A DNA stretch of 52,738 bases, from assembly GCA_029979565.1 (NCBI GenBank), contig JAPOHG010000007.1, positions 1 to 52,738 on the forward strand, given 5' to 3'. Within the stretch, counting starts at the first letter, position 1, and every line of letters starts with the position of its first letter. Under the pieces are notes generated by a model. It saw only the letters and a program-made list of their open reading frames with translations. It was not told where the DNA came from and did no database searches. Positions 36,869-41,467 of the stretch are shown in pieces. The position numbers and the translations under genes were made by a program. The DNA comes from a bacterium (GTDB lineage: Bacteria > Bacteroidota > Bacteroidia > Flavobacteriales_D > Sanyastnellaceae).

Positions 36869-36939
36869 GGTCCGATGGCCGAGTGGCTAGGCTCAGCTCT
36901 GCAAAAGCTGCTACAGCGGTTCGAATCCGCTTCGGACCT
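36869..36939 (+). tRNA. tRNA-Cys (anticodon GCA)
   Basis: 71 bases fold as a full cloverleaf. The acceptor stem pairs GGTCCGA with TCGGACC and the discriminator is T73, the cysteine identity base. The anticodon arm is CAGCT-CTGCAAA-AGCTG, anticodon GCA. The variable loop is 4 bases and the T-arm is AGCGG-TTCGAAT-CCGCT. CCA is not encoded. Its 3' end is the integration target of the element that follows: bases 36926-36940 recur exactly at 40943-40957. Confidence 0.96.
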
Positions 36940-36940
36940 C
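36926..36940 (+). repeat. attL-like direct repeat (tRNA-Cys 3' end)
   Basis: TCCGCTTCGGACCTC: the 3' part of the T stem, the acceptor strand, the discriminator and one base beyond. It is identical to 40943-40957. Repeats of this kind at both ends of a segment are the product of tyrosine-recombinase insertion at a tRNA gene. Confidence 0.85.
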
Positions 36941-36954
36941 ATCGTTTAAATGGA

Positions 36955-36993
36955 AAGCCCCGTTATCACTGAGATAGCGGGGCTTCTTTTTTT
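36955..36993 (+). terminator. Rho-independent terminator downstream of tRNA-Cys
   Basis: A 13-base stem (AAGCCCCGTTATC / GATAGCGGGGCTT, one G-T pair) with loop ACTGA is followed by C and seven T. It lies inside the element, just past the left repeat, and so replaces the original terminator, which now sits beyond the right repeat (40971-40997). Confidence 0.85.
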
Positions 36994-37219
36994 GTGCAGT
37001 GCTTTGCGGCATGCAACAGCTGGATGATGAGCTGGTGAATGCTCCTGAGAGGCAATCATCAAAAACGTTACAATCGCAATCATCGCGCCCATGAGGATTA
37101 AATGGAGCAGCTCAAAGTTCTCGATTCAACACATGATTACCGCGGTCTAATGATCTCGTGTTTTGAGTAAAATCAGACCATGAAGGGTTTGGTTTGTCTG
37201 GTTTTATGTTGTTTTAGTC

Positions 37220-37250
37220 TTTGATTACGGGAGTTTAGTTGGTATATTTC
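37220..37250 (+). promoter_or_regulatory. Predicted promoter of the island beta-propeller gene
   Basis: TTTG (37220-37223), 19 bases, TATATTTC (37243-37250): both Bacteroidota boxes at proper spacing. The -7 box ends 4 bases before the GTG start codon at 37255, so a leaderless transcript is predicted. Upstream, 36994-37219 holds two copies of GCAATCATC but no gene I can support. Confidence 0.5.
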
Positions 37251-37254
37251 GAAT

Positions 37255-40200
37255 GTGAGACATTTTATTCCCCCCAAACGCAGTCTGTTGCTCTTCATTC
37301 TGATTTGTTCGAGCACTGCATACGCGCAAAGCCTAACACAGGCACAACTTAGCGAGGCAGCGCAGTCAAAGTCTGTTTATCAAGATTTGCAGTCAAAAGG
37401 CGCAAATTTCTTTGCAACCCAAGCCGCCTTTAATGCCTACTGGGATAACCGCGAAATTGAAAAAGGACAGGGTTATACAGTGTTTAAGCGTTGGGAGTAT
37501 TTTATGGAAGAAAGGGTGTATCCGTCTGGAATAATTTTCCCTTCGAATGCTCGGTCAACAGCAGAAAGATTGTACTCATATTCACCTTCTAGTGGTTCAA
37601 GCGATGATACTCCGGTTCTTAACTCCTGGAAATCACTCGGACCAGAAGAAGCAATGGACGGTTGTTATGGAGTAGTTGGAAATGGAAGGGTCAACAAGGT
37701 AAGGGTAGACCCTAATAATAGTTCGATATTGTTTGCAGCAACTCCTGGAGGAGGGATTTGGAAATCGGCCAACGGCCAACCTTGGAAGCAACTTTGTTCT
37801 GATACCTTAGCCACTTTTGGAACGGCTCCGAACGACACTATTCCCAACATTGGCATGTCTGATATCGCAATTGATTACAACAATAGCGACATTCTTTATG
37901 CTGCGTCTGGTGACCACGATGCCTTTGACAATTACTCCGTTGGTATTTATAAATCAATCGATGGGGGAGAATCATGGTCACTGTCTTACAACGCCAACGA
38001 CGGTGCATTTGGCAATTGGAGTGCCGCAGCGGAGGGATGGGGAATTGGTCAACACCCCTACGGGCAAGATTCAAAATTAAATTTCACTATTTCCCGGATC
38101 CTCATATCCCCCGATGACAGCAACAAAATCATTGCGTCAACTCGAAAGGGAATCCTTTACACGGAAAATGCCGGCAACACTTGGGCAATGGCCACCAAAT
38201 CCGATGATAGCGATTTGGATGACGAGTTTCATGACATCGAATTCAAACCAGGAGATTCTAACGTGGCATACGCAGGAGCCGAAGGAGGGTTTTGGAAATC
38301 TGTGGATGGCGGCATATCCTGGACAGAATCCGCTCTTCCAAATTCGGCCGGAGCAAATCGAACGGCAATTGCAGTTGCAGAATCAGAGCCAAGTTGGGTT
38401 TATTTGATCTCGTCAGCAGGTAACGGAGGGCTCCACAACTTATACAAAAGCGAAGACTCTGGAGATAGTTGGAGCATAATTAACAGCTCCAATGCGGGTG
38501 GACATCCAAACTTGCTATGTGGCTCACTAAATGGTGTCTGTAATGGTGGGCAAGGAAACTACGATTTGTGCATTGCGGTTTCGCCAGTAAATGCAGATAG
38601 CATCTTCGTCGGTGGTGTAAACCTCTGGAATTCTCCAGACGGAGGAGCGACTTGGAATCAGATAGGTCATTGGTTTGACGGGCAGGTTCCAGAACATATA
38701 CATGCAGATCATCATGGTTTAACGTTCAATGGTGAAACCTTGATTATCGCAAATGATGGCGGAGTTTATGAGTCCACTGATGGGGTGACATTCAATAACA
38801 CCTCCCAAGGACTTGTAAACGGTCAGATATACAGCATGGGGCTCGCTCAGGATACGCTTGGTATGCTCTCGTGGGGCCTTCAGGACAATGCAACTCAACT
38901 TCGCATTGACAATAGAATTACAACCTTCCCCGGAGGAGGCGATGGCTTTGAGACTGAAGTCTGGGGCAATTCCAATCATAATGACAATGGTATCGCGAGT
39001 GATGACGAGTTTCTGGCCTATCGGAGCAACCAAACGGGCTGGTTTTACCGGACTGTAAATGATACCGTTTCCGCGTACGGAAATTGGACAAATTGTTATC
39101 CTGAAGAGAATAGTCTTCGCAATACACGTATAGCACGGGCCAATGGTGCAGCTGGAACTGTCGATGAGCCAGGGCAATGGCAAACTCCTTTCTTGGCAGA
39201 CCCCGAAAGTCCCAACCATATTTTTATCGGCAAGACTCTAGTTTACGAGTCCATTGACTACGGGCAAAATTGGAATGCCCTTCCATGCATTGGATTGAAC
39301 GCCGGTGGGGCATTGAATCATATTGAAATTTCCTGGCTAGATGAAGACTACATCTATGCTGCACGGCACAATCAAATATTCAGTTCCAGCGATGGAGGAT
39401 TGACATTTAATGACGTCACTGGAGCTGTCCTGCCGAACAAATGGATTACCGACATCGAAGTCGACGACGCTAATCCGCAAAGAGTTTTCATCACCATGGG
39501 TACATACGCCTCTGGTGAAAAGGTATATGTCAGCGATGATGCGGGCCAAAACTGGTCCGAAATGTCTGACGGCATACCAGACGTTCCGGTTAATTGCATC
39601 CTCTACAGAGAAGATTACACCGATGAAATTTACATCGGAACTGACATCGGGGTGTACGTATGGGACTCAGATGAAACTGAATGGGTCGACTTCAATTTGG
39701 ACATGCCAAATGTGATTGTCTCAGACATTCGAGTTCAGAACAACACAAGTCAAATTTATGCTGCAACATATGGCCGTGGAGTCTGGAAAGCCCAGCTACC
39801 TGTTTCAAACAGCGAGACTCAAGCGTCCGTCATATGTGATTCCGAATCGATTTCGATGGATTTAGATACCATTCATGATGATGGATTGGTCGGAGATTGG
39901 ACCTATTGGTTGGATGAGAATGTGAATGATGTCCTTGTATCCGGTTCAATTAATGAATCAACCATCACAATTGATGGCAGCTTGGAAGGGACGGGGCTTG
40001 ACACCCTCAAGGTCTACGGTTTTGACGGGGATAATAACTCTGTCATTCTTCACCTAACTATCGAAGAAGCCCTGTATCCGAAAGTCGTTGATTACTATGC
40101 TGTTCTGCCGGAGAATTACAGCATTCATGGTGGTGGAATTCAATTCACTTTTGAGGGTAACTATGACGAGCCTGTTGAAATTAACTTCCTGCATCACCCA

Positions 40201-40374
40201 ACGAAGGAGACGAATACGGTTGGCAGTATAGAATTGGAAAGTGGAGCATATTGGATTCTTGATTTTACCAATTCCAAAGGATGTTTAAATCCCGCCCCAG
40301 CGAATACGACGACGCCAATTGAAAATAATTCAGCGCCCATAAAGTTGCCGATCCCGCATTTTGTGGAAGATTAA
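37255..40374 (+). CDS. Large secreted beta-propeller (BNR/Asp-box, VPS10/sortilin-like) protein, island cargo
   Basis: 1039 residues from a GTG at 37255; no other start precedes the signal peptide (RHFIPPKRSLLLFILICSSTAYAQ), and the -7 box spacing fits. A helical N-terminal stretch (about 26-115) leads to propeller blades with Asp-box motifs: KSIDGGESW, KSVDGGISW, KSEDSGDSW, NSPDGGATW, SSDGGLTF and SDDAGQNW, between about residues 140 and 850. One or two Ig-like strands-only domains follow. Relatives in Bacteroidota usually end in a T9SS sorting domain; this one stops at PIKLPIPHFVED without it, and its last 110 bases overlap the integrase remnant on the other strand. It may have lost its C-terminus, in which case it would stay in the periplasm. 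Ligand or substrate unknown. Confidence 0.88.
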   Translation: MRHFIPPKRSLLLFILICSSTAYAQSLTQAQLSEAAQSKSVYQDLQSKGANFFATQAAFNAYWDNREIEKGQGYTVFKRWEYFMEERVYPSGIIFPSNARSTAERLYSYSPSSGSSDDTPVLNSWKSLGPEEAMDGCYGVVGNGRVNKVRVDPNNSSILFAATPGGGIWKSANGQPWKQLCSDTLATFGTAPNDTIPNIGMSDIAIDYNNSDILYAASGDHDAFDNYSVGIYKSIDGGESWSLSYNANDGAFGNWSAAAEGWGIGQHPYGQDSKLNFTISRILISPDDSNKIIASTRKGILYTENAGNTWAMATKSDDSDLDDEFHDIEFKPGDSNVAYAGAEGGFWKSVDGGISWTESALPNSAGANRTAIAVAESEPSWVYLISSAGNGGLHNLYKSEDSGDSWSIINSSNAGGHPNLLCGSLNGVCNGGQGNYDLCIAVSPVNADSIFVGGVNLWNSPDGGATWNQIGHWFDGQVPEHIHADHHGLTFNGETLIIANDGGVYESTDGVTFNNTSQGLVNGQIYSMGLAQDTLGMLSWGLQDNATQLRIDNRITTFPGGGDGFETEVWGNSNHNDNGIASDDEFLAYRSNQTGWFYRTVNDTVSAYGNWTNCYPEENSLRNTRIARANGAAGTVDEPGQWQTPFLADPESPNHIFIGKTLVYESIDYGQNWNALPCIGLNAGGALNHIEISWLDEDYIYAARHNQIFSSSDGGLTFNDVTGAVLPNKWITDIEVDDANPQRVFITMGTYASGEKVYVSDDAGQNWSEMSDGIPDVPVNCILYREDYTDEIYIGTDIGVYVWDSDETEWVDFNLDMPNVIVSDIRVQNNTSQIYAATYGRGVWKAQLPVSNSETQASVICDSESISMDLDTIHDDGLVGDWTYWLDENVNDVLVSGSINESTITIDGSLEGTGLDTLKVYGFDGDNNSVILHLTIEEALYPKVVDYYAVLPENYSIHGGGIQFTFEGNYDEPVEINFLHHPTKETNTVGSIELESGAYWILDFTNSKGCLNPAPANTTTPIENNSAPIKLPIPHFVED

Positions 40375-40786
40375 GCCCTTGCTTTAACAATGTGAGCTTC
40401 CTCCCTTGAAAAAGGACCATTTCAAGGTACCGCTCAAACGCCATTTCCGGCGTCTTCTCAACCGCCTTGGGAGCTTCCCCTTCCATCACGGAGAACGACG
40501 ACATTACAGCCTCATAGAAGGCCTTATTGCGTCTCCTACCCTGAGGCTTCGCCTGATAGAGTTCCGTCTCTATGTGGGCCTTCAATCGCTTCAGTTGGTG
40601 GTTGATGATGTCGTGACTTTCCGCAGCCACGGTACGAACCAATTGGGTGTTGTCATTCCAATGGCTCACGTGTTTGACTTCATGCCCTGTGGAGAATCGA
40701 AACTGATGCCCGCGTCCTTCAGAAATGAGCACGTAAATTTTTCCAGCGAGAGTCTTGGTTGGTCGAATGAAAAATGATGTTGTCAT
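40265..40786 (-). pseudogene. Tyrosine recombinase (phage-type integrase), N-terminal remnant
   Basis: 173 codons starting at the ATG at 40786. The first 110 or so residues match the arm-DNA-binding N-terminal domain of Bacteroidota integrases: MTTSFFIRPTKTLAGKIYVLISEGRGHQFRFSTGHEV, then HVSHWNDNTQLVR and the long helix ESHDIINHQLKRLKAHIETELYQA, followed by the start of a SAM-like core-binding region (EMAFERYLE). The frame then runs antisense through the end of the propeller gene and stops. The catalytic domain (R...HxxR...Y) is absent, whereas an intact enzyme would have about 380-420 residues. Its position just inside the right att-like repeat fits an integrase of the element. It cannot catalyse recombination. 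Confidence 0.75.
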
Positions 40787-40793
40787 AGGCTAC

Positions 40794-40814
40794 TGTGCAT
40801 ACCATTGTGCATAC
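40794..40814 (-). repeat. Tandem 9-base repeat upstream of the integrase remnant
   Basis: TGTGCATAC occurs at 40794-40802 and again at 40806-40814, a 12-base period, just upstream of the integrase start and followed by the AT-rich run TTATATATATGC. It could be an integrase arm site or an operator; nothing in the sequence decides between them. Confidence 0.4.
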
Positions 40815-40942
40815 ATCTTATATATATGCGTTAGTGCACTTTCGTTTTTCTTTCACCAAAATCCTCCGCAAGCCCAACAGCGACAAGGGTTCAACAGCAA
40901 GCAAGTGAAAGAATTGTCAACACAGCGAAAGCCGAAAATCCG

Positions 40943-40957
40943 TCCGCTTCGGACCTC
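40943..40957 (+). repeat. attR-like direct repeat
   Basis: Second exact copy of TCCGCTTCGGACCTC (the tRNA-Cys 3' end). Here it is preceded by G rather than A, so it does not rebuild a tRNA. It marks the right end of the element; the host-type sequence resumes with the terminator at 40971. Confidence 0.85.
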
Positions 40958-40970
40958 CATTTTCAATAAG

Positions 40971-40997
40971 CCCCAAGCAACCGCTTGGGGTTTTTTT
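40971..40997 (+). terminator. Rho-independent terminator beyond the right repeat
   Basis: CCCCAAGC / GCTTGGGG stem, AACC loop, seven T. There is no plus-strand gene just before it except the island, so it is best read as the original tRNA-Cys terminator, displaced by the insertion. Confidence 0.8.
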
Positions 40998-41050: not shown

Positions 41051-41467
41051 ATGGACGCATCAATGTTCGACACCGCCATGTTTGCCGCCTTGGCGACGGC
41101 TTACCTTCTCGTGGTTCTTCCGATTCTCCTCATTCTGATCGTTGCGAGCTGGAAGATTTTTACCAAAGCGGGCCAACCGGGTTGGACCATTCTCATTCCG
41201 CTCTATAACATTTACGTGTTCACCAAGGTCCTGTCACGACCCAAGTGGTGGATCCTGCTGTATTTTTTTGGCATCGTGCCCTACGTGGGGTCATTTGCCG
41301 TCTTGTTCGTCAGCATCATTGACAGCTTCCGCTTGGCGAAGCTCTTCGGAAAAGCGCCGGTGTTTGGCGTTGGTTTGCTGCTGCTTTCAGTCATTTTCTA
41401 TCCCATTCTTGCATTTGGCAGCGCCGAATACGATGAAACACGTGTCGTTGAAGGAGAGCTTATTTAA
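41051..41467 (+). CDS. Small membrane protein, DUF5684 type
   Basis: 138 residues from the ATG at 41051 (MDASMFDTAMFAALATAYLLVVLPILLILIVASWKIFTKAG). About four hydrophobic segments. The block IFTKAGQPGWTILIPLYNIYVFTKVLSRPKWW is characteristic of a family often annotated as DUF5684 or, wrongly, as signal peptidase I; no catalytic Ser/Lys of a signal peptidase is present. It ends in a charged cytoplasmic-looking tail (SAEYDETRVVEGELI). The next gene starts inside its last 35 bases, implying coupling. Function unknown. Confidence 0.82.
   Translation: MDASMFDTAMFAALATAYLLVVLPILLILIVASWKIFTKAGQPGWTILIPLYNIYVFTKVLSRPKWWILLYFFGIVPYVGSFAVLFVSIIDSFRLAKLFGKAPVFGVGLLLLSVIFYPILAFGSAEYDETRVVEGELI

What the first reader, a model, noticed from the sequence alone, without database searches (positions are those of the whole stretch)
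36926..40957. Decayed integrative element at tRNA-Cys with exact 15-bp att repeats
The 3' end of tRNA-Cys (TCCGCTTCGGACCTC) recurs exactly 4 kb downstream. Between the copies lie an AT-rich segment, one large secreted cargo gene and an integrase remnant. A 15-base exact match of a tRNA end at this distance is not expected by chance. The apparent original tRNA terminator now stands past the right repeat.
Basis: partly seen in the sequence, partly recalled or inferred. Interest (0 to 1): 0.75.

Follow-up and report, generated by a model that had tools for sequence, protein, structure and literature searches.

The report
Decayed gene-carrying element at tRNA-Cys
A 4 kb piece of foreign DNA inserted itself at the end of a tRNA-Cys gene in an aquatic flavobacterium, brought in one large gene for a probable secreted protein, and has since lost most of the enzyme that moved it; intact relatives at the same tRNA show how it worked.

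Summary
The last 15 bases of tRNA-Cys (36926-36940) recur exactly at 40943-40957, the only two copies in the 1.96 Mb, 80% complete assembly. G+C between them is 0.460; the lowest of 82 other 4 kb windows is 0.535.

Relative G021 has the predicted empty site. G011 and G017 carry other genes between the same repeats. A conserved right-end motif lies just inside the right repeat in four elements. The integrase piece is the first ~130 residues of a ~420-residue tyrosine recombinase. Its best intact relatives lie in 4.8-8.5 kb elements at tRNA-Cys in other Flavobacteriales. G021 also has a contig with an attP-like junction.

Two corrections: the terminator after the left repeat belongs to the element, and the cargo gene is not truncated. 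All 9 elements compared carry a terminator there, usually resembling their host's; the window's is another clade's type.

It is a new, decayed member of a known kind, from a family of small cargo elements I found no description of.

The parts
36869..36940 (+). tRNA-Cys (gca), attachment gene; its 3' end is restored by the element
   Evidence: ARAGORN
36926..36940 (+). attL core, 15 bp
   Evidence: exact repeat; only two copies in the assembly
36955..36985 (+). element-borne intrinsic-terminator-like hairpin (GTTATC type) after the left core
   Evidence: stem of 13 pairs and T run (number of such sites in the region is not above shuffles); fold z -5.5; hairpin at this place in 9 of 9 elements compared
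37255..40374 (+). cargo gene, 1039 codons, GTG start; Sortilin-Vps10/BNR-repeat protein, probably secreted
   Evidence: open frame; PF15902 E 1.2e-19; third-position G+C 0.439
39826..40371 (+). 182-residue C-terminal module of the cargo, shows that its 3' end is intact
   Evidence: 46-47% identical to the end of an unrelated G010 protein; 8 of 114 family genomes
40393..40786 (-). N-terminal fragment of tyrosine integrase (about 131 codons of about 420)
   Evidence: 68% identical to G021, homologous to the intact G016 integrase; no stop inside
40914..40942 (+). conserved right end, TTGTCAACACAGCGAAA and following bases; probable integrase-binding end (inferred)
   Evidence: 17 bases identical in 4 elements; pattern found in 4 of 114 family genomes, reversed control 0
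40943..40957 (+). attR core, 15 bp
   Evidence: exact repeat
40968..40993 (+). host's original tRNA-Cys terminator (CCCCAAGC type), displaced by the insert
   Evidence: hairpin and T run, fold z -4.68; directly after tRNA-Cys in relatives
41051..41467 (+). DUF5684 gene, right-hand host flank (start codon chosen by eye)
   Evidence: PF18936 E 6.6e-17; follows the empty site in G021

Best explanation
The segment 36926-40957 is a small integrative element that entered the chromosome by site-specific recombination at the 3' end of tRNA-Cys and was then partly deleted. Its tyrosine integrase recombined a 15-bp tRNA-tail core in a circular attP with the same core in the tRNA (attB). This restored the tRNA at the left and left a core copy at the right. 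The incoming left end carries its own intrinsic terminator, which now stands behind tRNA-Cys; the host's original terminator was pushed 4 kb downstream. A later deletion removed the C-terminal two thirds of the integrase gene, which faces the cargo gene, leaving the cargo (a large, probably secreted sortilin/BNR-repeat protein) intact and fixed in place. Shown: repeats, composition step, empty site, related inserts with other genes, integrase homology and truncation, hairpins, attP-like and attB forms in one relative. Inferred: the order of events, the deletion as a single step, that the right-end motif binds integrase, that the hairpins terminate the tRNA transcript, and that the cargo is exported.
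For: Exact 15-bp tRNA-tail repeat, two copies in the assembly. G+C step at the repeats. Empty site in G021:C18. Inserts between the same repeats in G011 and G017. Right-end motif beside the core in window, G011, G017 and G021:C30 only, of 114 family genomes. Integrase fragment next to the right repeat, homologous to an intact 423-codon frame (PF00589 E 4e-8) and to an N-terminal part in G021. Best full-length relatives in the order: 5 of 12 integrase places examined lie in elements closed by the tRNA-Cys tail, and 2 more have such a core beside them. G021 has a vacant attB and a contig with right end, core and left end in one line, integrase parts at its two ends. In G021 the integrase and cargo genes converge with their stops about 30 bases apart, the arrangement from which the window's could arise by one deletion.
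Against: No strain with the same insert was available, so excision or inheritance of this copy is untested. The integrase fragment looks constrained, not long decayed: differences from G021 fall 27/22/68 on codon positions and changes assigned to the window branch 9/3/23, so truncation is recent or the fragment has a use. Terminator-like sites in the region are not more numerous than in shuffles (4 against 4.7). The GTTATC terminator type also stands at a single-core site directly before DUF5684 in G004, so the type alone does not mark an insert. No direct repeats that could be arm sites were found. G021:C30 has no terminal overlap, so a circle is not proven. All data are draft metagenome assemblies.
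Confidence: 0.9

Rival explanations
1. It is not dead but non-autonomous: a minimal cassette (ends plus cargo) that is moved in trans by a full-length integrase of the same specificity from another element, with the N-terminal integrase fragment kept, for example as an end-binding regulator.
For: Cores are exact and the right-end motif is intact. The G017 insert shows no integrase gene among its larger reading frames yet keeps the same ends. The integrase fragment has no stops and shows a constrained substitution pattern.
Against: The assembly has no other match to the integrase alignment at E<=1e-15 (assembly 80% complete). The homologous fragment in G011 contains stops. The constrained pattern may predate the truncation. 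No excised form of this copy was seen.
Confidence: 0.15
2. It is a remnant of a PICI/PICMI-like phage satellite that used a helper phage to spread, with the secreted protein as later cargo.
For: Kin elements in G200, G262 and G164 carry integrase, an HTH protein (the G200 one matches HTH_17 and excisionase PHROGs) and, in G262, a protein matching terminase small subunit PHROGs at 2.3e-13. G016 has an HTH_17-like gene below the Pfam cut-off.
Against: The window element and G021:C30 show no such genes among their reading frames. No primase or capsid gene was recognised among the kin genes scanned. Only one distant integrase relative turned up in IMG/VR.
Confidence: 0.2
3. The right repeat is a chance match or a stray partial tRNA copy, and the AT-rich gene between is simply a locally acquired gene.
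For: Distant homologs of the cargo occur in 91 of 114 family genomes at E<=1e-30, so such genes are common; secreted repeat proteins can differ in composition.
Against: The sequence left of the right repeat is the conserved element end, not tRNA. An empty site exists. Chance expectation is well below one. An integrase piece lies beside the repeat.
Confidence: 0.02

Closest known systems
tRNA-targeting integrative elements / genomic islands with tyrosine integrase (general kind, from general knowledge)
   Same: Exact repeat of the tRNA 3' end at both boundaries, integrase gene beside the distal repeat, foreign composition, cargo gene, empty site in a relative
   Different: Only about 4 kb with one cargo gene; integrase reduced to its N-terminal part; carries its own terminator behind the restored tRNA
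Intact tRNA-Cys elements of other Flavobacteriales found here (G148, G200, G262, G164, G245)
   Same: Same tRNA, same 15-base core position, related integrase next to the distal core and facing inward, hairpin right after the left core
   Different: Low-G+C hosts; integrase intact; in G200, G262 and G164 an HTH protein and unassigned ~130- and ~400-residue proteins in place of a large secreted-type gene
PICMI satellites of Vibrionaceae (PMC10803314, abstract and passages seen)
   Same: Small islands with few genes, integrase and a fixed chromosomal site
   Different: PICMIs sit next to fis and need int, alpA and a primase; the window element has an integrase fragment and cargo only, at tRNA-Cys
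Tycheposons and additive flexible genomic islands of aquatic bacteria (PMC10872708, passages seen; the original tycheposon paper was not read)
   Same: tRNA-bounded cargo islands with a tyrosine recombinase; additive islands show recurring tRNA 3'-end repeats, as the three cores in tandem in G148 do
   Different: Described there for tRNA-Met and tRNA-Lys in Methylophilaceae; no common ancestry of the recombinases was tested

Membership tests
tRNA-targeting tyrosine-integrase integrative element | direct repeat of the tRNA 3' end at both ends | tested here: met
   15 of 15 bases, two copies in the assembly
tRNA-targeting tyrosine-integrase integrative element | uninterrupted site in relatives | tested here: met
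   G021:C18: tRNA, same terminator type, DUF5684
tRNA-targeting tyrosine-integrase integrative element | functional tyrosine recombinase in the element | tested here: not met
   only the first ~130 residues remain; hence called a decayed member
tRNA-targeting tyrosine-integrase integrative element | excision to a circle | not testable with these tools
   no reads; an attP-like junction seen only for the related G021 element
PICI/PICMI-type phage satellite | int, alpA and primase together (the PICMI model) | tested here: not met
   window: integrase fragment and cargo only among reading frames; kin: integrase and HTH protein, no primase recognised among genes scanned
PICI/PICMI-type phage satellite | packaging by a helper phage | not testable with these tools
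   terminase small subunit-like protein only in kin G262
Tycheposon | cargo-bearing element of 4-200 kb bordered by a tRNA (as described in PMC10872708 passages) | tested here: met
   4.0 kb, bordered by tRNA-Cys
Tycheposon | the tycheposon-type recombinase and one of its seven tRNA genes | not tested
   no tycheposon recombinase was compared, and the list of seven tRNAs was not seen
Additive flexible genomic island | cassettes separated by recurring tRNA 3'-end repeats | tested here: inconclusive
   window has only two copies; three cores in tandem in G148

The most novel reading that the evidence does not exclude
Flavobacteriales host a widespread, undescribed family of 4-8 kb tRNA-Cys elements that act as self-inserting cassettes, in this genus for large secreted proteins. 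Each carries, next to its attP core, a spare tRNA terminator matched to its host lineage, so that insertion never leaves tRNA-Cys without a terminator. The terminator is then a record of the element's last host, and the window element was imported from a lineage with a different terminator type.
Probability: 0.35. Interest if true: 0.6.

Novelty: new member of a known kind. Interest (0 to 1): 0.42.

Why it matters
It shows one way aquatic Bacteroidota may trade large secreted-protein genes: small elements insert at tRNA-Cys, bring cargo and then lose the integrase, leaving the cargo fixed. Several stages are visible in one genus: vacant site, probable free form, bounded inserts with damaged or missing integrase. 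The element-borne terminator that tends to resemble the host's makes a question testable: how an element can insert behind a tRNA gene without disturbing the end of its transcript, and whether the terminator tells where the element came from.

Tried and rejected
Rejected: that one deletion truncated both cargo and integrase. The cargo's last 181 residues align to the very end of an otherwise different G010 protein and the two frames stop at the same place, and the other module bearers also end there, so only the integrase is cut.

Rejected: that one native terminator type follows tRNA-Cys in all genus members. Two types exist, and the GTTATC type also stands directly before DUF5684 in G004, so the type alone does not prove an insert.

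Set aside: the core 15-mer in G004:C8, between ordinary genes with no element features seen. Unexplained: core plus terminator behind a recN-like gene in G014:C124.

Led nowhere: Pfam and PHROGs for the ~400-residue protein of the kin (one of three scanned) and the PDB with an alignment of all three; it had one weak match in phages, none in plasmids and none in IMG/VR. IMG/VR gave one distant integrase relative. PDB with the integrase alignment: none at E<=0.001. Search for direct repeats as arm sites: none. The ten loci with cargo homologs have no core (up to 2 mismatches) or right-end motif (up to 1).

Papers: searches returned none. Searches returned one and four papers; of these the first of seven parts of PMC12324425 was seen (Charybdis elements, putative archaeal hosts, not related), the others only as listings. 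One search listed eight papers with the word tycheposon. Of one search's four papers, passages of PMC5395568 were seen and do not describe this. The library is open-access only.

Full report
Observation. The tRNA-Cys gene lies at 36869-36940 and its last 15 bases recur exactly at 40943-40957. The assembly (1,957,202 bases, 96 contigs, 79.64% complete) holds only these two copies. G+C is 0.460 between the repeats, 0.568 in the rest of the window, and not below 0.535 in any of 82 other 4 kb windows. Third-position G+C is 0.439 in the cargo gene, 0.588 in the integrase fragment and 0.726-0.748 in three genes outside (I call them pssA, CotH-like and helicase; only the first was checked by Pfam).

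Anatomy, left to right. Core 36926-36940; a terminator-like hairpin 36955-36985 with a T run; a 1039-codon gene 37255-40374; a reverse-strand integrase fragment from 40786 to about 40393; a right-end stretch with TTGTCAACACAGCGAAA; core 40943-40957; a second hairpin 40968-40993; a DUF5684 gene. Both hairpins fold far better than shuffles (z -5.5 and -4.68), though the number of terminator-like sites in the region is not above shuffles (4 against a mean of 4.7).

Empty and occupied sites in the genus. Of 22 genomes, 3 have two cores bounding an insert: the window, G011 (cores 5,970 bp apart) and G017 (4,226 bp). G021 has a vacant site on contig C18 (tRNA, CCCCAAGC terminator, DUF5684) and a separate 5,515-bp contig C30 with one core between a right end and a left end. 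Twelve have one core at the tRNA: G004 (its second copy is elsewhere), G005, G006, G007, G008, G009, G010, G013, G018, G020, and G002 and G019, where the contig breaks at the core and a second contig resumes there. Six are unresolved: no core was found in G001, G003, G012, G015 and G016, and in G014 only a core behind a recN-like gene. That is 3, 1, 12 and 6 of 22. A single core does not by itself prove an empty site: in G006 and G010 other genes lie between the tRNA and a DUF5684-like gene.

G021:C30. An integrase N-terminal part (positions 1-173 of the 413-position model) runs off one contig end, and a C-terminal part (315-412) lies at the other. A circular element of about 5.9 kb with about 0.4 kb unassembled would give this. 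No terminal overlap was found, so a tandem copy or a strain mixture is not excluded.

The integrase. The window fragment is 68% identical over 130 residues to the G021 N-terminal part and homologous to the intact G016 integrase (PF00589 E 4e-8; arm domain PF17293 below its cut-off). The fragment alone matches no integrase family. Homology ends near residue 125-130. There is no stop in 131 codons; differences from G021 fall 27/22/68 on codon positions, a dN/dS of about 0.12 with near-saturated synonymous sites. Changes assigned to the window branch with G011 as reference fall 9/3/23, to the G021 branch 11/15/23. Truncation is therefore recent, or the fragment is kept for a use. In G011 the homologous fragment contains stops. 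Seven of 114 family genomes have a match to the fragment.

Kin across the order. Of 399 order genomes, 95 have a match at E<=1e-15. I fetched 13 regions: 12 with integrase places and one with the G012 scrap. Of the 12 places, five lie in elements closed by the tRNA-Cys tail: G148 (8,492 bp), G200 (4,826), G262 (5,904), G164 (5,092) and G245 (5,696; tRNA partly masked and not called by ARAGORN). The second G148 integrase has a third copy of that core beside it, and G335 has a tRNA-Cys-type core beside its integrase on a 5.4 kb contig. G218 and G158 sit near two complete copies of tRNA-Lys or tRNA-Gln about 7.0 and 5.5 kb apart; G341 is near tRNA-Gln, G318 on a contig with tRNA-Leu and tRNA-Gly, and G116 has no tRNA in the stretch read. 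In a tree of 16 rows the tRNA-Lys/Gln integrases form a separate group (100/99) and the window, G021 and G016 a group of three (100/99); the fork joining the latter with the tRNA-Cys kin is weak (84/92) and includes G318 of unknown site.

Kin gene content. G200, G262 and G164 carry an integrase, a 198-290-residue unknown, a ~100-residue protein (HTH_17 E 1.2e-7 in G200), a ~130-residue and a ~400-residue protein. Of the G200 set all five were scanned: only the integrase and the HTH protein have families; in G262 one protein matches terminase small subunit PHROGs at 2.3e-13. In the window's genus the inserts hold large secreted-type genes instead: G021 a lamin-tail protein with a T9SS-type tail (TIGR04183, 24.3 bits against a cut-off of 23), G011 a 1,464-residue protein without a family, G017 three genes without a family above cut-off. 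G016 has Fib_succ_major and MORN proteins on a contig whose element boundaries were not found.

Right end. GTCAACAC within 8-30 bases of an exact core occurs in 4 of 114 family genomes, all in this genus, with 0 for the reversed control. TTGTCAACACAGCGAAA is identical in all four while the bases further left are much less alike. More diverged ends would have been missed.

Terminators. All 9 elements compared have a hairpin with a T run within 55 bases after the left core (folding energies -15.6 to -29.5 kcal/mol; shuffles were run only for the window). Element and host terminators match better within an element than when partners are dealt out anew (0.0003 of 20,000 permutations; 0.009 when dealt within the two clades; relatedness not otherwise corrected). 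The own host ranks first for 4 of 9, second for 4 of 9 and fifth for the window. The window element has the GTTATC type while its host has the CCCCAAGC type; 47 of the first 50 bases after the left core match those after tRNA-Cys in G006. I infer that the element came from a lineage with that type. How an element comes to carry a host-like terminator (selection, or recombination in the repeated stretch, as the near-identical bases after both G148 cores would allow) is not settled.

Cargo. The product has Sortilin-Vps10 (E 1.2e-19) matches and a BNR match just below its cut-off, and homologs of 48-50% identity over about 840 residues in G002 and G015. Its last 182 residues form a module with matches in 8 of 114 family genomes including its own; in the 8 other proteins that carry it the frame ends 164-196 residues after the match start. 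No Por_Secre_tail was found in it. Export is inferred by eye from the N-terminal stretch and from the kind of domains.

Host names. Contigs of equal length to G016:C96, G021:C30 and G012:C44 are listed as MAGs of uncultured Flavobacteriales or Bacteroidetes bacteria (CAJQKK010000096.1, CALJFZ010000030.1, JAQCJQ010000008.1). The window's own species name was not obtained; 'aquatic' rests on my reading of these isolate names.

Verdict. This is a decayed tRNA-Cys integrative element with an intact cargo gene, a new member of a known kind. The more interesting part is the family: small tRNA-Cys cargo elements with an element-borne, usually host-like terminator, of which I found no description in the searches, limited to the held open-access library.

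Noticed in passing
39826-40371: C-terminal module of 182 residues, ending in most bearers with a GC(F/x)NPEPAT...VP(Y/H)-type tail, at the end of otherwise different proteins in 8 of 114 family genomes including G000:C49; possibly an undescribed export or anchoring module, as no T9SS tail was found in the cargo.
   Followed up: partly
L121 (G014:C124), core at contig 141-155: The 15-bp core plus a GTTATC-type terminator stands directly behind a recN-like gene (named by eye) instead of a tRNA, at a contig end: secondary site, rearrangement or misassembly.
   Followed up: no
L158 and L159 (G148:C4, cores at 212448, 229951, 238443): Three tRNA-Cys cores in one array with an integrase beside each of the two distal ones, a tandem array of elements.
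   Followed up: partly
L167 (G218) and L168 (G158): More distant integrase kin lie beside whole-gene duplications of tRNA-Lys and tRNA-Gln, 7.0 and 5.5 kb apart, each copy followed by a different hairpin-like stretch.
   Followed up: no
L044 (G012:C44, 4002-4121): A 40-residue scrap, 94% identical over 34 residues to the G016 integrase N-terminus, another integrase remnant with no tRNA in the 12 kb read.
   Followed up: no
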